A stretch of DNA of 37,337 bases. Source: Eubacteriales bacterium. Its GTDB lineage: Bacteria; Bacillota; Clostridia; Peptostreptococcales; Acidaminobacteraceae. The stretch spans positions 1-37,337 of the forward strand of contig DAOUQP010000006.1 of assembly GCA_030625575.1 (NCBI GenBank), given 5' to 3'. The notes beneath the pieces are model-generated. The model had not been told where the DNA came from, ran no database searches, and saw only the letters and a list, made by a program, of their open reading frames with translations. The position numbers and the translations under genes are program-made. Below are positions 2,455 to 16,124 of the stretch, piece by piece. Positions within the stretch are counted from its first letter, which is position 1, and every line of letters begins with the position of its first letter.

Positions 2455-2859
2455 ATGAGTAGGATTAAAACAAGAGAATTAGTAATGATACAACTCTATC
2501 AGATGGATATTCATAACGATTATAAATTTTATCCATCTGTAGAGAAAACAATTGCAACAAAGATTCATGATGGCAGAGAAATAAAATATGCTATGCAGAT
2601 TTTTAAGGAATTTACACAGAACAAAGATATAATAGATAAATTAATTATCGATTTTAGTGAAAATTGGAATATAGATCGTATAGCCAAAGTAGATTTGGCA
2701 ATTATTAGATTATCGATAACAGAAATGCTCTTCTCGAAATCTGTACCTGAATCTATATCAATCAATGAAGCCATAAATTTATCTAAAAAATTCAGTGATG
2801 AGGATTCATATAAATTTATCAATGGTCTTTTAGGGAAAATTGTCAGGAGTCAACAATGA
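2455..2859 (+). CDS. nusB: Transcription antitermination factor NusB
   Basis: NusB binds boxA RNA together with ribosomal protein S10 and supports antitermination of rRNA transcription. The all-helical 134-residue protein opens with MSRIKTRELVMIQLYQMD, close to the family start, and has the C-terminal motif SINEAINLSKKFSDEDSYKFINGLLGKI. An in-frame ATG at 2443 would add four residues, but the AGGTG Shine-Dalgarno at 2446-2450 fits the ATG at 2455. The stop overlaps the next start in an ATGA junction, so the two genes are translationally coupled. Confidence 0.95.
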   Translation: MSRIKTRELVMIQLYQMDIHNDYKFYPSVEKTIATKIHDGREIKYAMQIFKEFTQNKDIIDKLIIDFSENWNIDRIAKVDLAIIRLSITEMLFSKSVPESISINEAINLSKKFSDEDSYKFINGLLGKIVRSQQ

Positions 2860-3758
2860 TAACTTTAGGTGTCGATACAAGCAATTATACGACATCTATT
2901 GCATTATCAAATGACTACAATGAAGTGATTTTAGATTTAAGAAGACCATTAAAAGTACCAAACGGCAGTATAGGCTTAAGGCAATCGGATGCGTATTATC
3001 AGCATATTCAAAATTTATCTCAAATGTTGGATGAAATCAGTAAATATGCTATGGACATTGAAAAGATAGTTATATCAACACAACCGAGAAATCTTGAAAA
3101 TTCCTATATGCCTGTATTTAATGCAGGTGTTTTTTTTGTAAAAGCGATGAATTTTAATAACCAATATGAAATCATAGAATTATCACATCAAGAAGGACAT
3201 ATTCTGTCTGGTTGGTGTGAATATTTCAGTAATGTCGACGAGTTTTTTTTGTTGCATATATCTGGAGGAACAACAGAATTATTAAAAGTTAAAAAAACAA
3301 ATGCAAGATTGAAATCTCAGATAGTTTACGAGAGCTTGGATATTAGTTTTGGCCAATTACTTGATCGCATTGGTAATTATATGAATTTGGATTTTCCTGC
3401 AGGCATGTATTTGGACAAGATTGCAGACAAATATATAAAAACAAATTTCAAGATATCTGCAAATGAAAAAGGTTTTAATCTCTCTGGAATGGAAAATAAA
3501 TTCAAAAATATTTATGATGAAACCAGTGATTCAAAATATGTTGCAAATTTAACTTTTTCATATATTGTTGAGATAATTGAATCAATCAATTACCGCTTTG
3601 TAAAGAGTCAACCTTTATTAATTGTTGGTGGTGTTGGGGAAAGCTGTTTTTTGAGAGATAATATCGCAAAAAGCAATATCATTTTCACAAAGAAGAATTT
3701 ATCGAGAGATAATGCTGTAGGACTTTCTCAATATCCGTTTATTCTGGAGGAAATATGA
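2856..3758 (+). CDS. TsaD/Kae1-like paralogue (peptidase M22 family)
   Basis: A 300-residue member of the Kae1/TsaD ASKHA-fold family. It begins with ITLGVDTSNYTTSIAL, the family's nucleotide-binding start. It has the metal-ligand region SHQEGH (H-x-x-x-H), a glycine-rich ISGGTTELL and a late LLIVGGVGESCFLR. True TsaD, which makes t6A in tRNA, is longer (about 340 residues), and this version is more divergent. In Clostridia a second TsaD-like gene of this kind often sits between nusB and xseA; its function is not established. It overlaps nusB by 4 bases and xseA by 4 bases. It may have lost threonylcarbamoyl transfer, but the metal site appears kept. Confidence 0.8.
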   Translation: MITLGVDTSNYTTSIALSNDYNEVILDLRRPLKVPNGSIGLRQSDAYYQHIQNLSQMLDEISKYAMDIEKIVISTQPRNLENSYMPVFNAGVFFVKAMNFNNQYEIIELSHQEGHILSGWCEYFSNVDEFFLLHISGGTTELLKVKKTNARLKSQIVYESLDISFGQLLDRIGNYMNLDFPAGMYLDKIADKYIKTNFKISANEKGFNLSGMENKFKNIYDETSDSKYVANLTFSYIVEIIESINYRFVKSQPLLIVGGVGESCFLRDNIAKSNIIFTKKNLSRDNAVGLSQYPFILEEI

Positions 3759-4966: not shown

Positions 4967-5184
4967 AAGAGATCAATTTAGAAAATAATTTAAAAGAGCT
5001 GGAAAAAATATTTGAGAAACTCGAAAACGAGAATATCCCACTAAGCGAATCGTTGAAGTTGTTTGAAATGGGTATAAATATATATAGAGAAAGTATTGAT
5101 GAAATTGAAAAAGTGAAAACACAAATTACTATTTTAGTTGACAATAAAGAGAAAAAAATTGATGTAGGGGATTTAAATGAATAA
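4963..5184 (+). CDS. xseB: Exodeoxyribonuclease VII small subunit
   Basis: The 73-residue helical-hairpin subunit that binds the extended helix of XseA. It starts at a GTG overlapping the xseA stop in GTGA. The family pattern is clear: NLKELEKIFEKLENENIPLSESLKLFEMGINIYRESIDEIEKVKTQI. The 3' end overlaps ispA by 8 bases. Confidence 0.95.
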   Translation: MKEINLENNLKELEKIFEKLENENIPLSESLKLFEMGINIYRESIDEIEKVKTQITILVDNKEKKIDVGDLNE

Positions 5185-6064
5185 CGATTATAGAAAAATC
5201 AAAACTCTTATAGAAGAACATTTAACGACTTACTTTAAAAATGAAAATAATAATCACGAAAAAAGATTTAATGAAATAATAAATTACTCTCTTTTGGCAG
5301 GAGGGAAAAGATTAAGACCTGTTTTATTGTATAAAACTACAGAATTATTGAATGGTAATCTTAAATACGCTTTAGAACTGGCATGTGCTTTAGAAATGAT
5401 TCATACTTATTCATTGATTCATGATGATTTGCCTGCTATGGATAATGATGATTATAGAAGAGGTAATTTGACATCTCATAAGGTTTATGGAGATGCAATG
5501 GCTGTTTTGGCAGGAGATGCTTTATTGAATAGGGCATATGAAATTATCATAAGCACAATTCTAGATAGCAATGGCGATAAAGGTGTAATAAAAGCTTCAG
5601 AGTTAATTGCGAATTCTGCTGGATTTAAAGGAATGATAATAGGACAGGTTGTAGATATTGATACTGAGAACAAAGATATCTCTAAAGATGTGCTTAATTA
5701 TATTATTGAAAACAAAACAGGCAAATTATTGATTGCGGCAATAGTGTCAGCGGGATATTTGAGTGATTTAAATGAATCGGAGATCGAATTGCTTAATAAG
5801 GCTGCTTACCATATTGGATATAGTTTTCAGCTGATAGATGATTATTTAGATGTTGCTGGTGATTCTGACCTCGTTGGAAAATCTATAGGCAAAGATAATA
5901 AACTTGGTAAGAATACATATGTAAAGTATAATGGTATTGAGAGAACTCGAAGTGATGCACAAAATCATTTAAACATCGCTAAGGATACTCTGGAGATGAT
6001 TGAAGGATATAAATTAGATTTTCTTTATGATATTATCGAGTATTTAAAAAATAGAGAAAAGTAG
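5177..6064 (+). CDS. ispA: Polyprenyl (farnesyl) diphosphate synthase
   Basis: Condenses isopentenyl diphosphate with allylic diphosphates to make farnesyl or geranyl diphosphate, precursors of undecaprenyl phosphate and quinones. The 295-residue protein has GGKRLRP, the first aspartate-rich motif HDDLPAMDNDDYRRG and the second motif LIDDYLD, all intact, plus the conserved lysine/threonine in ENKTGKL. The extended first motif (DDxxxxD) is typical of bacterial short-chain enzymes. The start codon lies inside the xseB end, so the gene is coupled to exonuclease VII. Together with dxs and ispH it gives three isoprenoid genes in the window. Confidence 0.94.
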   Translation: MNNDYRKIKTLIEEHLTTYFKNENNNHEKRFNEIINYSLLAGGKRLRPVLLYKTTELLNGNLKYALELACALEMIHTYSLIHDDLPAMDNDDYRRGNLTSHKVYGDAMAVLAGDALLNRAYEIIISTILDSNGDKGVIKASELIANSAGFKGMIIGQVVDIDTENKDISKDVLNYIIENKTGKLLIAAIVSAGYLSDLNESEIELLNKAAYHIGYSFQLIDDYLDVAGDSDLVGKSIGKDNKLGKNTYVKYNGIERTRSDAQNHLNIAKDTLEMIEGYKLDFLYDIIEYLKNREK

Positions 6065-6072
6065 GTAGAAAT

Positions 6073-6513
6073 ATGGTTGCTAAAGAAATATTTTTTAATC
6101 AATACTTTTATATTGCTTTTATAGCATGGCTAATTGCTCAACTAAGTAAAGTTGTAACGAATTTAGTGATTGAAAAAAGATTGAACTTATATCGTTTGGT
6201 TGGATCAGGCGGAATGCCGAGTTCTCACTCTTCTTTTGTTATGGGATTATCGACTTCCATAGGATTGGATAAAGGTTGGGATAGTGCTAGTTTTGCTATT
6301 GCTTTGGTATTTTCTTTGGTCATTATGTATGACGCATCCGGCGTTAGAAGAGCGGTTGGAAAACAGGCAATAATACTAAATACTATGCTTGATGATTTAT
6401 CTAAGCATAAACATATTGAGCAAGAAAAATTAAAAGAGCTTATTGGACATACACCTTATGAAGTTTTAGTTGGAGCAATATTAGGCATTGTAATTGCAAA
6501 TTTAATGTTATAG
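6073..6513 (+). CDS. Divergent PAP2 (DUF212/YuiD-type) membrane protein
   Basis: A 146-residue integral membrane protein of the divergent PAP2 family (YuiD-like). Hydrophobic segments lie at about residues 7-28, 50-65, 75-95 and 128-146. The family signature GSGGMPSSHSSFVMGL corresponds to the SGH/PSxH region of PAP2 phosphatases, and it is followed by YDASGVRRAVGKQA. PAP2 enzymes hydrolyse lipid or prenyl diphosphates. Its position between ispA and dxs suggests a prenyl-phosphate substrate, but activity is unproven for this branch. It follows ispA by 8 bases and ends 9 bases before the OLE-like RNA. Confidence 0.85.
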   Translation: MVAKEIFFNQYFYIAFIAWLIAQLSKVVTNLVIEKRLNLYRLVGSGGMPSSHSSFVMGLSTSIGLDKGWDSASFAIALVFSLVIMYDASGVRRAVGKQAIILNTMLDDLSKHKHIEQEKLKELIGHTPYEVLVGAILGIVIANLML

Positions 6514-6514
6514 T
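6488..6514 (+). promoter_or_regulatory. Possible promoter for the OLE-like RNA
   Basis: A -10-like TATAGT at 6509-6514 spans the stop codon of the preceding gene. It would place a transcript start near 6521-6523, exactly where the closing helix of the RNA begins. The best -35 candidate is TTGTAA at 6488-6493, but the spacer is only 15 bases, so support is weak. The RNA may instead be processed from the long operon transcript. Confidence 0.3.
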
Positions 6515-6522
6515 GAATATAT

Positions 6523-7069
6523 GGTGGTGCAGTATTCTAGTCAACAAATCCAATCCCCAAGGCGGGGCTAAAAATCCGTCAAAGGGCACATCGATGAAGT
6601 TCCTGGTTTTGGCTTGTGACGCCCAGTCATGGGCTTTTGCTGGGAGTAAGGAACTAGGGGCGTGCTACAATGGCATGTAGCATACGACCCTTATTCCGTG
6701 GAGACTTGCTATATGCAAGATGAAACCTATCTGTAGTGAAACTACAGATAGTGTAGCCTGCCTTGAGTGGCGCTTGGTAGACGGTAGTTAAATGTATCGC
6801 TATTGGCCAATAGCGATATATCATCGCTAATCTAAACCATCACTGCAAAAGAGGCTAAGGATTAGATGCGTTGTTGAGGAAAACTCCTAGACTGTTCGTA
6901 AGAAGTAGAACGGGGATTAAAGTGTGAGCTAAGTGGTAATTCAGTCTTATTACTGGTGACAGTGTAAATAACTACATAAAAGGAAACTGCTGATTTGGTG
7001 ACAAATCAGTGTAGTTATGGGAAACCCTACTGGACCTAAGCCGCAAAGTTTACTCGTTTTGCTACCACC
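6523..7069 (+). ncRNA. ole: OLE RNA (Ornate Large Extremophilic RNA)
   Basis: About 550 bases with no plausible reading frame, visibly more GC-rich than the surrounding genes. The ends can pair as a closing helix: GGTGGT at 6523-6528 with ACCACC at 7064-7069. Strong internal helices include CCCC/GGGG at 6555-6567, AGTTCCT 6598-6604 with AGGAACT 6649-6655, GCCCA/TGGGC at 6621-6634, GTGCTACA/TGTAGCAT at 6662-6683, CTTGC/GCAAG at 6705-6719, a 10-bp stem at 6727-6751, a perfect 10-bp stem at 6795-6818, and a two-part stem at 6968-7018. Known OLE RNAs are about 600 nt, sit between ispA and dxs in Firmicutes, and are followed at once by the membrane protein OapA; all three conditions hold. Known OLE localises to the cell membrane as a ribonucleoprotein and is linked to tolerance of stresses such as alcohol, cold and Mg2+. 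The class call rests on location, size, fold and partner, not on an alignment. Confidence 0.9.
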
Positions 7070-7093
7070 TTTATTAAAATTTGGAGATTGATT

Positions 7094-7648
7094 ATGAAAA
7101 TAAAAAAAGAAAACAAGTGGATAATTCATGTGTTTTTTATGACGTTTTTTTTGGCTGTAAGCATTAGTGTTCTGTCGGAAATTTCTATTAAAAATTTAAA
7201 TATAGTATATTCGATTATTATATTAATGATAATTGTTTTTACTGGAATTATATTCGATATTATCGGTATAGCTGTTACTGCAGCGAATCCAAAACCGTTT
7301 AACGCTATGGCGTCAAGAAAAATAAAAGGTGCGAAAAAAGCGGTTAATTTAGTGAAGAAAGCTGATAGAGTATCAAATTTCTGCAATGACGTTATCGGTG
7401 ATATCGCAGGAATTTTAAGTGGTGCCGCCATTGCCGGCATATCGATTAAAATGGCACGATATGATTATTCTATATTAAATATATCTCTTATTGCAGTTAT
7501 TCTTAGTGGTTTAACTGCTTCGTTTACTGTTGGAGGCAAAGCCTTCGGTAAACAAATCGCAATCAGAAAATGGGAAAAAATAGTATTTTATACAGCGCTG
7601 ATTCTTTATCTAATTGAAGATAAAGTTAAAATCAAAGTAATGAAATAA
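7094..7648 (+). CDS. oapA: OLE-associated membrane protein OapA
   Basis: A 184-residue membrane protein placed 24 bases after the OLE-like RNA. Hydrophobic segments lie at about residues 10-30, 37-60, 125-150 and 160-178. A polar, very basic central region runs IAVTAANPKPFNAMASRKIKGAKKAVNLVKKADRV and suits RNA contact. A glycine-rich segment GDIAGILSGAAIAGISIK follows. In the family OapA binds OLE RNA directly and anchors it to the membrane. An in-frame TTG at 7088 lies only one base after the GGAG box, so ATG 7094, seven bases from it, is preferred. dxs follows after 13 bases. The assignment rests on topology, the basic core and position. Confidence 0.87.
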   Translation: MKIKKENKWIIHVFFMTFFLAVSISVLSEISIKNLNIVYSIIILMIIVFTGIIFDIIGIAVTAANPKPFNAMASRKIKGAKKAVNLVKKADRVSNFCNDVIGDIAGILSGAAIAGISIKMARYDYSILNISLIAVILSGLTASFTVGGKAFGKQIAIRKWEKIVFYTALILYLIEDKVKIKVMK

Positions 7649-7661
7649 TGGAGTTGAAATT

Positions 7662-9494
7662 TTGAATATTTTAGATTCAATCAAAAAACCATCAGATATT
7701 AAAAAACTAAAAATAAATCAGTTGAATCAATTGTCAAATGAATTAAGAGAATTTATCCTTGAAAGCGTTAGTCAAACAGGGGGACATTTAGCTTCAAATC
7801 TAGGAACAGTTGAACTTACAATAGCATTGCATTATGTTTTTAACAGTCCTGAAGATAAATTGATATGGGATGTTGGACATCAAGCATATGCTCATAAGAT
7901 TTTATCAGGAAGAAAAGATGCATTTAGCACTCTTAGACAGCTAGATGGACTAAGTGGATTTTTAAAACGATCTGAAAGTGAACACGATATTTTGGAAGCA
8001 GGTCATAGCTCAACATCGATATCTGCCGCATTGGGTTTAGCGAAGGTAAATGAAAATCTTGGTAATAATGATAATTACGTACTGCCGATTATCGGGGATG
8101 GAGCCTTAACAAGTGGAATGGCATTTGAAGCGCTTAATTACGCCGGTCAATGCAAAAGCCAACTGATTATCATACTGAACGATAATGAAATGTCGATATC
8201 CAATAACGTCGGCAGCATTTCAAAATATCTGAATAAAATCAGAGGATTTAAACTGTATACATCCTTAAAGCGTTCTATGGTTAATAAGTTAACTAAATCA
8301 CAAATAGGTACAAAAACTTATCATGTGATTTCAAAAACAAAAAGTAGCTTTAAAGAATTATTTATTCCAGGAATGCTATTTGAACATTTTGGATTATCTT
8401 ATATTGGACCAGTAGACGGTCATAATATTAAAGAAATAATTGAAACATTGGAACTTGCAAAAAAATTGGATAAACCAGTTCTTTTTCATGTGAAAACTGT
8501 AAAAGGAAAAGGTTATTTGTCTGCTGAGAAAAATCCTGATTTATATCACGGTGTTGGAAAATTCGATTTAAAATATGGAATAACACCATCAGATAAATCA
8601 ACATATTCGAATGTTTTTGGAAACCATTTACTTGATATGGCAAAGAATGATAGTAGAGTCATTGTATTGACTGCTGCGATGTCGTCCGGTACTGGGTTGA
8701 ATAAATTTGCGGAAGAACTAAATAAACAGTTCATCGATGTCGGTATCGCCGAGCAAAATGCCGTTACAATGGCTGCAGGGTTGGCTATTGGAGGATTCAA
8801 ACCTTATGTAGCTGTGTATTCTACTTTTTTACAAAGAGCTTTTGATCAAATAATTCACGATGTCGCCTTACAAAATTTAAGTGTTGTTTTTTGTATAGAT
8901 AGATCGGGATTAGTTGGAAGTGATGGGGAAACTCATCATGGAATTTTCGACACATCTTATTTAAGTCTTATTCCAAATATAACTATCATGATGCCGAAGG
9001 ATAGTAATGAACTTATTAGAATGCTGGATTTCAGTAAAGACTTCAACGGACCTTTGGTAATAAAATATTTTAAAGGTGAGTCATACACAATCAACGATGA
9101 TGTAGATGATTTATTTGAACCTGAGCTTATAGTTAAAGGGGAAAATACTCTTATCATTACAACTGGTAGATTGGTAAAAGAAGCATACGATGCATCGGAA
9201 ATAAACAATTTCAGCTACGGTGTTTTAAATGTAAGAACACTAAAACCTTTAAATTATGAAAGCATTTATAATATAGCAAAAGATTATGATAAAGTATTTA
9301 TTATTGAAGAAAATATAAAAACAGGTAGTTTTACCATGCAAATGGAAAATCATTTTCTAAAAAATGGATTTACAAATGTTGAAACATTCAATTTGCCTGA
9401 TACATTCATAGAACATGGAAGCATCAATGAGTTGCTTGACAGGTACCAATTAGATGCCAAGGGAATAATTAACCATATAAATAAAGGAATGTGA
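7662..9494 (+). CDS. dxs: 1-deoxy-D-xylulose-5-phosphate synthase
   Basis: The thiamine-diphosphate enzyme that condenses pyruvate with glyceraldehyde 3-phosphate, first step of the MEP isoprenoid pathway. The 610-residue protein has the N-terminal QTGGHLASNLGTVELTIALHYVF, the TPP-binding GDGALTSGMAFEALN with NDNEMSIS, the transketolase glutamate region DVGIAEQNAVTMAAG, and DRSGLVGSDGETHHG. It uses a TTG start; the GGAG at 7650-7653 lies 8 bases upstream and no closer ATG fits. It is directly downstream of the OLE/OapA pair, the arrangement known from other OLE-bearing Firmicutes. Confidence 0.96.
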   Translation: MNILDSIKKPSDIKKLKINQLNQLSNELREFILESVSQTGGHLASNLGTVELTIALHYVFNSPEDKLIWDVGHQAYAHKILSGRKDAFSTLRQLDGLSGFLKRSESEHDILEAGHSSTSISAALGLAKVNENLGNNDNYVLPIIGDGALTSGMAFEALNYAGQCKSQLIIILNDNEMSISNNVGSISKYLNKIRGFKLYTSLKRSMVNKLTKSQIGTKTYHVISKTKSSFKELFIPGMLFEHFGLSYIGPVDGHNIKEIIETLELAKKLDKPVLFHVKTVKGKGYLSAEKNPDLYHGVGKFDLKYGITPSDKSTYSNVFGNHLLDMAKNDSRVIVLTAAMSSGTGLNKFAEELNKQFIDVGIAEQNAVTMAAGLAIGGFKPYVAVYSTFLQRAFDQIIHDVALQNLSVVFCIDRSGLVGSDGETHHGIFDTSYLSLIPNITIMMPKDSNELIRMLDFSKDFNGPLVIKYFKGESYTINDDVDDLFEPELIVKGENTLIITTGRLVKEAYDASEINNFSYGVLNVRTLKPLNYESIYNIAKDYDKVFIIEENIKTGSFTMQMENHFLKNGFTNVETFNLPDTFIEHGSINELLDRYQLDAKGIINHINKGM

Positions 9495-12455: not shown

Positions 12456-13301
12456 ATGAAAGTAAGAGTAGAAAGTTTTATTAAATATTTACATAGTAAT
12501 AAGTTATCTCATAATACTATAATATCGTATGAGAGAGATATAAGAGAATTTAGTAAATTTCTTAGTTCAAAAAATATTATTGATTATCAAGAAATTGAAC
12601 AAGTTCATATTAGTGATTTTGTTGATCAAATGACACTTAAAGGAGTAAGCAATTCGACAATATATCGCAAATCAACGACAATCAAAAAATTCTTTTCGTT
12701 TTTGTTGAAAGATGACTTGATTACTCATAATCCTACTTTAGAAATTAAAAGACCGAAAGTTAAAAGAGACCTGCCGGATTGTATTTCCAGAGAAGAATTT
12801 GATTTAATAGTGAATGAAATCGATAAAACCTCATTAGTAGGAAAAAGAGACTATTTAATATTTGAGTCGTTGTTTGGAACAGGAATTAAAGTTTCTGAAC
12901 TTATCAATGTAAATGTTGATGACGTTAATATGAATACAAATGAATTAATGATTAATAACAACAACGTAAGAAATATTCCTTTGAAGACAGAACTCTTGGA
13001 AATAGTCAGTGATTACTTCATCAATACAAGAAGTAACTTCATTAAATATCCTACAGATGCTTTATTCTTAAATTACAAAGGTGATAGAATTTCAAGACAG
13101 GGAATCTGGAAAATCATTAAAAAATACTCTCATCAATCACCGATTGATAAGGAGATAAATCCTCATACTTTAAGGAACTCTTATGCAGTTCATTTATTCA
13201 ACAATGGTGAAAAACCTGAACATGTAAGAAAAATTATGGGATATAACCATATTATATCTTCGAAATATTTTTCTTGTTGTACAAAGGAAGGAGTAGAATA
13301 A
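12456..13301 (+). CDS. XerD-like tyrosine recombinase with substituted catalytic residues
   Basis: A 281-residue protein at the normal xerD position just before deoB. Residues 1-85 form the SAM-like core-binding domain (SHNTIISYERDIREFSKFL, STIYRKSTTIKKFFSFLLKDDLITHNP). The catalytic domain follows but its residues are altered. By alignment with XerD, the first arginine of G-[LI]-R-V-S-E-L is K145; the beta-hairpin lysine region reads N-N-N-N-V-R-N with no lysine; H237 and R240 of HTLR are kept; the histidine of L-G-H is Y263; and the nucleophilic tyrosine position is F272, with a tyrosine one residue earlier (Y271). The protein then ends after only nine more residues. The frame is clean, so this looks like a maintained pseudo-recombinase or a very divergent enzyme. 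Spacing between the substituted positions is as in E. coli XerD. Confidence 0.85.
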   Translation: MKVRVESFIKYLHSNKLSHNTIISYERDIREFSKFLSSKNIIDYQEIEQVHISDFVDQMTLKGVSNSTIYRKSTTIKKFFSFLLKDDLITHNPTLEIKRPKVKRDLPDCISREEFDLIVNEIDKTSLVGKRDYLIFESLFGTGIKVSELINVNVDDVNMNTNELMINNNNVRNIPLKTELLEIVSDYFINTRSNFIKYPTDALFLNYKGDRISRQGIWKIIKKYSHQSPIDKEINPHTLRNSYAVHLFNNGEKPEHVRKIMGYNHIISSKYFSCCTKEGVE

Positions 13302-14475: not shown

Positions 14476-15309
14476 ATGGATTATAAAAGAAAAATCGAGC
14501 TTTCGACTGAATATATTCTAAAAGAGTTGAAAGGTATTGAAAATATTGAAGTAGCTCTGATTCTAGGATCGGGTTTAGGTGTTTTAGCAGATGAAATTTC
14601 AAATCCTATTATTATTTCATATGACGATATACCATATTTTCCAGTATCGACTGTTGAAGGGCATAAAGGTCAATTTGTAATCGGAAATTTATCCGGCAAG
14701 ACTGTTATTGCAATGCAAGGCAGATTTCATTATTATGAAGGTTATGATATGAAAAAAGTAACTTTCCCAATTAGAATTTTCAGTGCATTGGGAATCAAGA
14801 AAATGATTGTAACAAATGCTTCTGGTGGGGTTAATCTAGATTATGTTGCTGGTGATTTGATGATTATTGAAGATCATATCAATTTTGCTTTTGATAATCC
14901 GCTAATCGGGAAAAATTGTTCAGAAATGGGACCTAGATTTCCTGACACTTCGAGAATTTATAAAGAATATTTAATGGATATCGCACAAGATTCCGCCAAA
15001 GAATTAAATATTGAAATAAAAAAAGGAGTTTATTTATTCAATACAGGTCCAACGTATGAAACACCTGCTGAAGTAAAAATGGCACGTGTTTTAGGAGCGG
15101 ATGCTGTGGGTATGTCGACTGTGCCTGAAGGCATTGTTGCTGCTCATGAAGGTATAGATGTATTGGGAATCTCTTTAATAACAAATATGGCTTCGGGAAT
15201 TTTAGATCAACCTTTAAGTCATAGTGAAGTTGTAGAAACGGCAGATAGAGTGAAAAATGATTTTATCAAATTAGTTAAAAAAATACTTGAAAAAATAGAG
15301 GTGAAATAA
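14476..15309 (+). CDS. Purine nucleoside phosphorylase (first of tandem pair)
   Basis: Trimeric class I PNP, which splits inosine and guanosine with phosphate. The 277-residue protein shows GSGLGVLADEI, the phosphate-site histidine in VEGHKGQ, QGRFHYYEGY, TNASGG, the purine-binding NTGPTYETPAE and GMSTVPE, and TNMASG. The asparagine of TNMA corresponds to human PNP N243, which favours 6-oxopurines, so classic inosine/guanosine specificity is likely. It starts 2 bases after deoB. A paralogue follows directly, overlapping by one base. Confidence 0.93.
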   Translation: MDYKRKIELSTEYILKELKGIENIEVALILGSGLGVLADEISNPIIISYDDIPYFPVSTVEGHKGQFVIGNLSGKTVIAMQGRFHYYEGYDMKKVTFPIRIFSALGIKKMIVTNASGGVNLDYVAGDLMIIEDHINFAFDNPLIGKNCSEMGPRFPDTSRIYKEYLMDIAQDSAKELNIEIKKGVYLFNTGPTYETPAEVKMARVLGADAVGMSTVPEGIVAAHEGIDVLGISLITNMASGILDQPLSHSEVVETADRVKNDFIKLVKKILEKIEVK

Positions 15310-16124
15310 TGCAACAGAAAATTAGTGAATCAGTAAACTATATCGAATCGAAGATAAATGTAGAACCTAAAATAGGTTTGATATTAGGCTCTGGACTAGG
15401 AGATTTAGCAGATGAAATAATCAACCCGATTGTAATCGAGTATAAAGATATACCACATTTTCCAGTTTCGACTGTAGAAGGACATAAAGGACAGTTGGTA
15501 ATAGGAGAATTAATGGGGAAAAATGTTGTTGCTATGCAAGGAAGACTACATTACTACGAAGGGTACAGTATGCAAGATATTACTTATCCTGTACGTGTAA
15601 TGAAAAAATTAGGTGTTGAAACACTTCTAGTGACAAATGCATGTGGAGGAATGAACCCGAAACTATATCCAGGAGCATTGATGCTTATTACAGATCATAT
15701 AAATATGATGGGCGACAATCCTCTTATGGGTAAAAATCTTGACGATTTTGGACCTAGATTCCCTGATATGTCAGCAGCATACAATCCTGAATTGATCAAC
15801 GTCGGTAGAAAAGTAGCAAAAGATTTAGATATCGATGTACAAGAAGGTGTTTATACAGCAATTAGTGGACCTTATTATTTGTCAAAAGCTGAATTAAAGA
15901 TGCTTAGAACAATAGGGGGAGATACAGTTGGAATGTCAACTATTCCAGAAACCATTGTTGCAAATCATTCTGGAATTAAAGTCCTCGGAATATCTTGTGT
16001 TACAGATATGGCTATAGCTGAAACTTTAGAGCCTCTAGAACACGAAAAAGTAATGGAAATTGCAAATATGACAAAACCTAAATTTTCCGCTTATGTAAAA
16101 GGCATTATAAAAGAGGTCGAATAA
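15309..16124 (+). CDS. Purine nucleoside phosphorylase paralogue with N-to-D change
   Basis: A second 271-residue class I PNP, clearly related to its upstream neighbour through GSGLGDLADEI, VEGHKGQ, QGRLHYYEGY, TNACGG and GMSTIPE. The base-binding region differs: the first copy has NTGPTYETPAE, this one has AISGPYYLSKAE, and TNMA has become TDMA. In human PNP the equivalent asparagine-to-aspartate change is known to permit adenosine, so this copy may accept 6-aminopurine nucleosides or be specialised in another way. Assignment as a phosphorylase is firm; the specificity is inference. Confidence 0.9.
   Translation: MQQKISESVNYIESKINVEPKIGLILGSGLGDLADEIINPIVIEYKDIPHFPVSTVEGHKGQLVIGELMGKNVVAMQGRLHYYEGYSMQDITYPVRVMKKLGVETLLVTNACGGMNPKLYPGALMLITDHINMMGDNPLMGKNLDDFGPRFPDMSAAYNPELINVGRKVAKDLDIDVQEGVYTAISGPYYLSKAELKMLRTIGGDTVGMSTIPETIVANHSGIKVLGISCVTDMAIAETLEPLEHEKVMEIANMTKPKFSAYVKGIIKEVE

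What the first reader, a model, noticed from the sequence alone, without database searches (positions are those of the whole stretch)
6523..7648. OLE RNA with its membrane partner OapA in the ispA-dxs interval
About 550 bases without a gene fold into many strong helices, and its two ends pair (GGTGGT with ACCACC). It sits between isoprenoid genes and directly upstream of a small basic-cored multi-pass membrane protein. Size, closing helix, position and partner match the OLE RNA/OapA ribonucleoprotein, an elaborate membrane-bound RNA whose full function is still unresolved. The host here looks like a non-sporulating clostridial anaerobe rather than the best-studied alkaliphilic Bacillus, so it would be a useful comparison.
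Basis: partly seen in the sequence, partly recalled or inferred. Interest (0 to 1): 0.92.

Follow-up and report, generated by a model that had tools for sequence, protein, structure and literature searches.

The report
Ordinary OLE RNA with partner OapA
This stretch holds a complete copy of OLE, a known large membrane-bound bacterial RNA, next to the gene of its usual protein partner OapA, in a bacterium that seems unable to form spores; it is a clear but ordinary member of a known kind.

Summary
The Rfam OLE model (RF01071) matches window 6508-7084 + over its whole length at 489.4 bits (cut-off 50), the only copy in the host assembly. The 184-residue protein at 7094-7648 is OapA: membrane helices and a basic central loop, the DxxxD motif, a sub-threshold CNNM match, a CNNM-like predicted fold, and orthologues directly downstream of OLE in all 32 OLE-bearing genomes among 61 examined. 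Conversely, all 80 OapA loci kept from a named-genome scan carry OLE upstream. OapB, a YbxF/OapC candidate and bS21 are present in the host. Covariation is strong. OLE from a clostridium already has a cryo-EM structure, so this is a new member of a known kind. One modest addition: 0 of 37 genomes of the host's family reach the SpoIVA cut-off and 7 of 37 have Spo0A_C, yet 18 of 37 carry OLE, so in this family OLE does not seem to depend on sporulation.

The parts
6508..7084 (+). OLE RNA gene, full Rfam model span (577 nt; outer ends follow the model, true transcript ends not measured)
   Evidence: RF01071, 489.4 bits, model 1-616 of 616; only copy in the host assembly
6523..6528 (+). 5' strand of the terminal closing helix (GGUGGU)
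   Evidence: helix 1, 4 of 6 pairs with changes on both sides across 30 sequences
7064..7069 (+). 3' strand of the terminal closing helix (ACCACC)
6561..6580 (+). P4a hairpin, the region of one published OapA site (helix name assigned by me from the order of helices in the Rfam model)
   Evidence: site from PMC12265935 section 6
6588..6650 (+). J4a/5 and P5 region (approximate ends), including the conserved J4a/5 sequence used in the OapC-induced k-turn
   Evidence: k-turn model from PMC9723947 section 5
6650..6697 (+). P6 hairpin (approximate ends; bS21-binding region in H. halodurans); conserved GGGG/ACCC core kept, CCUCCU anti-Shine-Dalgarno mimic absent
6705..6719 (+). P7, reduced to 5 bp and a 5-nt loop (much shorter than the Rfam consensus)
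6727..6751 (+). P8 hairpin, 11 bp
6990..7009 (+). P13 hairpin with GGUGAC loop (OapB-binding region in H. halodurans)
   Evidence: site from PMC12265935 and PMC12054373
7094..7648 (+). oapA, 184 aa, membrane protein with DVIGD (DxxxD) at residues 99-103
6073..6513 (+). DUF212 (divergent PAP2) gene ending 9 nt before the OLE core; neighbour, not part of the RNP
5177..6064 (+). ispA-type farnesyl diphosphate synthase gene, neighbour
7662..9494 (+). dxs, neighbour

Best explanation
Identity (shown by sequence and covariation): a complete OLE RNA gene followed directly by oapA, in an ispA-DUF212-ole-oapA-dxs-tlyA-argR-recN cluster, with oapB, a ybxF/oapC candidate and rpsU (bS21) elsewhere in the same genome. 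Mechanism (inferred from published work on H. halodurans and C. acetobutylicum; nothing functional was tested here): the RNA is probably transcribed with its operon, processed, dimerises, and is held at the membrane by OapA, a small protein with a CNNM-like transmembrane fold. OapB clamps P12.2/P13; OapC and bS21 switch P5/P6 into a kink-turn. Most likely the particle acts as a stress-responsive controller of divalent metal ion (Mg2+) movement through OapA, with the RNA standing in for the cytosolic regulatory domains that MpfA-type transporters carry. My confidence is about 0.98 for the identity and about 0.5 for this working model; the figure below is for the identity as an OLE/OapA locus of the usual kind.
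For: RF01071 at 489.4 bits over the full model. 77 of 152 predicted pairs have compensatory changes in 30 sequences, against a mean of 54.4 in shuffles and 23-35 in slid controls; 96.7% of cells paired against 37-45% when slid. OapA: hydropathy peaks that I read as four membrane segments, loop 63-98 with 9 K/R and 1 D/E, D99 and D103 invariant in 14 and in 26 aligned sequences, CNNM hit 20.2 bits against a cut-off of 28.4, AlphaFold2 pLDDT 85.9, best PDB matches MtCorB and a bacterial CNNM/CorC (weak E-values). OapA present in 32 of 32 OLE-bearing genomes of 61, in each within about 200 nt downstream; the single OapA without a full OLE (G052) sits at a contig end that still holds the last 120 nt of OLE, 78.5 bits. 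80 of 80 OapA loci have OLE within 470 nt upstream. OapB: the only PDB hit at E 0.001 is OLE-associated protein B, E 2.6e-9, next to infA; YbxF hit E 2.1e-12; bS21.
Against: No transcript, binding or phenotype data for this host. P7 is much shorter than the Rfam consensus and the CCUCCU mimic of H. halodurans P6 is missing. Neither Pfam nor NCBIfam returned a model that names OapA, so that assignment rests on motif, fold and linkage; Foldseek E-values to CNNM structures are only 0.008-0.7. The host also has two CNNM-domain proteins in tandem, so OapA may not be its only such transporter. OapB is not specific to OLE carriers (57 of 61 genomes).
Confidence: 0.95

Rival explanations
1. A cis-acting leader (riboswitch-like element) of oapA rather than a stand-alone RNA: it would control oapA translation or transcription only.
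For: It ends 9 nt before the oapA start and lies directly upstream of OapA in all 32 OLE-bearing genomes of 61.
Against: Size, full match to OLE and conserved protein-binding regions; published OLE is processed at its 3' end (PMC11332333) and is an abundant, membrane-localised RNA acting in a particle (PMC12265935).
Confidence: 0.02
2. A decaying OLE locus: the RNA is a relic in a lineage losing it.
For: OLE is patchy in the host family (18 of 37 genomes), P7 is short, and the host has other CNNM proteins.
Against: 489.4 bits, most conserved positions intact, oapA open and 73% identical to that of the nearest relative aligned, OapB and an OapC candidate retained.
Confidence: 0.03
3. A different large structured RNA family or chance folding of an AT-rich gap.
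For: Large gaps can fold by chance; nothing specific.
Against: E 8.9e-141 to OLE and no other Rfam family at gathering score in the window; covariation against shuffled and slid controls.
Confidence: 0.002

Closest known systems
OLE RNA (Rfam RF01071), full-length type, Bacillota
   Same: Whole model matched; terminal helix, P4a, P5, P6, P8, P9 and P13 present; upstream of oapA in an isoprenoid cluster.
   Different: P7 cut down to 5 bp; no CCUCCU in P6; 577 nt against a median of 612 in the 80 named loci.
OapA (with MpfA/CorB/CorC CNNM transporters as distant relatives)
   Same: Membrane helices, basic loop, DxxxD, CNNM-like predicted fold, directly downstream of OLE.
   Different: Lacks the CBS and CorC_HlyC domains of MpfA; below the CNNM cut-off.
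C. acetobutylicum OLE (cryo-EM dimer; PMC12286853, passages)
   Same: Same RNA class and the same stated length (577 nt), from a clostridial anaerobe.
   Different: The host family here shows no SpoIVA match at cut-off. No direct sequence comparison with the C. acetobutylicum RNA was made.
Variant 1 and variant 2 OLE RNAs (PMC11332333, section 4 part 1)
   Same: Shortened P7, as in variant 1.
   Different: P8, P9 and the P13 loop are present and OapB exists, so neither variant fits. The published variant models themselves (a figure) were not seen.

Membership tests
OLE RNA (RF01071) | Covariance-model score above the gathering threshold over the full model | tested here: met
   489.4 against 50 bits, positions 1-616
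OLE RNA (RF01071) | Conserved secondary structure with covariation | tested here: met
   77 of 152 pairs double-changed, controls 54.4 (shuffled) and 23-35 (slid); the structure was predicted from the same alignment
OLE RNA (RF01071) | oapA gene in the same genome, usually directly downstream | tested here: met
   32 of 32 OLE-bearing genomes
OLE RNA (RF01071) | Discrete ~550-600-nt, abundant, membrane-localised RNA | not testable with these tools
   no RNA data
OLE RNP | OapB (KOW-type, binds P13) present, P13 loop kept | tested here: met
   E 2.6e-9 to 7k9b; GGUGAC loop
OLE RNP | OapC/YbxF present, k-turn strands kept | tested here: inconclusive
   protein candidate present (E 2.1e-12 to YbxF); J4a/5 conserved, but k-turn formation not modelled
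OLE RNP | bS21 present with SD/ASD mimic in P6 | tested here: inconclusive
   bS21 present; CCUCCU mimic absent in the window and in 103 of all 104 P6 stretches examined
OapA | Small four-helix membrane protein with DxxxD motif | tested here: met
   definition from PMC11332333 section 9. The count of four helices is my reading of overlapping hydropathy peaks
OapA | CNNM-like fold without CBS or CorC_HlyC domains | tested here: met
   fold match probability 0.98-1.00 but E 0.008-0.7
OLE variant 1 or 2 | Variant 1: short P7, P8 and P9 and often lost OapB site; variant 2: no P7 and P8 | tested here: not met
   P7 short only; P8, P9 and P13 present

The most novel reading that the evidence does not exclude
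In this clostridial family the complete OLE particle (full-length RNA, OapA, OapB, a likely OapC) has been kept after the spore-formation programme was lost, in the host alongside other CNNM-type proteins, so its stress or ion-handling role is separable from sporulation, with which OLE correlates across Bacillota.
Probability: 0.5. Interest if true: 0.35.

Novelty: new member of a known kind. Interest (0 to 1): 0.2.

Why it matters
OLE is one of the largest conserved bacterial RNAs without a known biochemical function. Published profiling links it to sporulation genes (PMC11332333); a family in which OLE persists without a SpoIVA match, and mostly without Spo0A, offers a natural control for that link. 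Otherwise this adds one more, typical, member.

Tried and rejected
Other RNA families: none reached gathering score in the window. A different identity for the downstream protein: NCBIfam gave nothing, Pfam only a sub-threshold CNNM, a PDB sequence search nothing at E 1; motif, fold and linkage settled OapA. An apparent OapA without OLE (G052) was a contig-end artefact; the second extra hit, G055 (E 8.7e-4, 436-aa frame), overlaps a CNNM gene found over its cut-off and was taken as a CNNM-type transporter. OLE variant 1 or 2: rejected because P8, P9 and P13 are present. A sporulation link inside the host family: not found (Spo0A in 5 of 18 with OLE, 2 of 19 without, Fisher p 0.23), although over all 61 genomes a positive association is visible (17 of 33 against 4 of 28, p 0.003), as published. 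CNNM anticorrelation: two or more CNNM genes in 3 of 32 OLE-bearing and 14 of 20 OLE-lacking genomes of 90% completeness or more (p 9e-6); for one or more CNNM genes over all 61 genomes it is not significant (19 of 33 against 22 of 28, p 0.1). One search used stricter filters that can lose weak OLE matches. A literature search joining OLE RNA with sporulation and non-sporulating listed 20 of 764 papers, none of the 20 with OLE RNA, so I make no claim about what is unpublished.

Full report
OBSERVATION. The stretch has the features described. Rfam OLE (RF01071) matches 6508-7084 on the + strand over its full model at 489.4 bits, E 8.9e-141, and is the only Rfam family at gathering score in the window. 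The host assembly (2.29 Mb, 215 contigs, 73.6% complete) holds one copy. As single-stranded RNA, 6523-7069 folds far better than shuffles (z -6.9; 0 of 100 shuffles as good).

STRUCTURE. I aligned the window OLE with 29 of the 31 other OLE sequences found among 60 relatives (one search gives 32 of 61 genomes, host included; the two lowest-scoring, from G004 and G007, were given no loci and are not in the alignment). RNAalifold predicts 152 pairs, of which 77 have at least one compensatory double change. The count control gives 96.7% of cells paired and a covariation score of 0.420, against 0.181 for shuffles and 0.064-0.098 for slid versions. The structure was derived from the same alignment, which by itself favours it over the slid versions. 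P7 is cut to 5 bp; P8 (11 bp), P9 and the P13 hairpin are present. Four members of the host family (L027, L029, L033, L036) lack the distal part of P9, which the window keeps, so size change in this region is normal variation. Helix names were assigned by me from the order of helices in the Rfam model and the text of the papers.

PROTEIN PARTNERS. The gene at 7094-7648 encodes 184 residues with hydropathy peaks that I read as four membrane segments, and a basic loop. D99 and D103 (DVIGD) are invariant among 14 sequences from the window and relatives and 26 from the window and named genomes; DxxxD is described as distinctive of OapA (PMC11332333, section 9). Pfam CNNM matches below its cut-off (20.2 against 28.4 bits), in line with that paper, where OapA is the next-closest group to the CNNM model after MpfA. 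An AlphaFold2 model (pLDDT 85.9) has as its four best PDB matches CNNM-family chains (MtCorB, and a bacterial CNNM/CorC), with Foldseek probability 0.98-1.00 but E-values of only 0.008-0.7. In 61 genomes, OapA occurs in every one of the 32 OLE-bearing genomes, within about 200 nt downstream of OLE, and in one more (G052) where the contig ends inside OLE; one further weak hit (G055) coincides with a CNNM gene. My own ORF rule found the downstream gene in 28 of 30 loci; in the other two (L032, L035) it was visible in the printed frame. Because the best 80 were chosen by closeness to this OapA, they say nothing about remoter homologues. OapB lies directly before infA (the gene before it looks like map, by eye) and its only PDB hit at E 0.001 is the OLE-associated protein B crystal structure. 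A YbxF-type protein sits between genes that read as rpoC and rpsL (by eye) and is the OapC candidate; the other L7Ae-type gene of the host follows genes that read as nusA and ylxR and is probably YlxQ (names recalled, not tested). bS21 is present. OapB is far more widespread than OLE among these genomes (57 of 61) and was not found in one OLE-bearing genome, G032; the paper also reports OapB outside OLE carriers.

HOST. In G013, of the same family, Spo0A directly follows a recN-like gene; in the window a tyrosine recombinase follows recN, and in G003 one follows a gene of recN size and position. Spo0A_C is found in 7 of 37 genomes of the host family and not in the host; SpoIVA reaches its cut-off in 0 of 37, of which 29 are 90% complete or more. 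Two genomes (G007, G025) gave sub-threshold SpoIVA scraps. The host being 73.6% complete, absence there alone would be weak, but the syntenic gap and the family-wide result agree. Divergent SpoIVA genes could have been missed. OLE is nevertheless in 18 of 37. So a role for OLE that needs sporulation is unlikely to be its only one here. Over all 61 genomes OLE and Spo0A are still positively associated (p 0.003), in line with the published correlation.

MECHANISM. Nothing functional was measured. From published work: OLE dimerises (PMC12286853, passages), OapA localises it to the membrane and resembles MpfA-type Mg2+ transporters (PMC11332333, abstract, section 4 parts 1-2 and section 9; PMC12265935, abstract, section 3 part 1 and section 6), OapC and bS21 switch P5/P6 to a k-turn (PMC9723947, abstract and section 5; PMC12054373, passages and section 6), and the particle is needed under cold, alcohol, Mg2+ and carbon-source stress. 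The best-supported reading here is the same device, with divalent-ion control through OapA as the most likely core task. The host also has a tandem pair of CNNM proteins, one with CBS and CorC_HlyC (415 aa) and one with CBS only (345 aa), so only one has the full MpfA architecture; [quoted passage not shown]

SIDE RESULT. The CCUCCU anti-Shine-Dalgarno mimic described for H. halodurans P6 is absent from all 30 sequences of the window and its relatives, and present in 1 of 74 named OLE sequences that could be examined (L091, Halalkalibacter wakoensis); 6 of 80 were skipped because the P6 loop motif was not found (a simple pattern search). The paper itself reports that constructs with a changed mimic but kept pairing still bound bS21, and that conserved G-C pairs matter.

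VERDICT. Identity confirmed; ordinary member; modest comparative value.

Noticed in passing
window 12456-13301: A XerD-like tyrosine recombinase follows recN, where G013 of the same family has Spo0A after its recN-like gene; consistent with loss of spo0A from the cluster.
   Followed up: partly
window 14476-16124: Two adjacent purine-nucleoside phosphorylase genes, followed by a pyrimidine-nucleoside phosphorylase and preceded by phosphopentomutase: a nucleoside salvage cluster with a duplicated enzyme.
   Followed up: no
window 2856-3758: A 300-aa TsaD-like protein between nusB and xseA, below the NCBIfam TsaD cut-offs: a divergent paralogue of unclear role.
   Followed up: no
L005 430-2727 (host contig C67): Tandem CNNM proteins, one with CBS and CorC_HlyC and one with CBS only; similar neighbouring pairs in G017 and G029.
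   Followed up: partly
L101 2234-2822: An OLE from a water-deer rectum Clostridia MAG scoring only 264.4 bits over the full model, the weakest of the 80: possibly a divergent variant.
   Followed up: no
   Followed up: partly
OLE P6 region, window 6683-6697 and 103 other loci: The CCUCCU anti-Shine-Dalgarno mimic is found in only 1 of 104 P6 stretches examined.
   Followed up: partly
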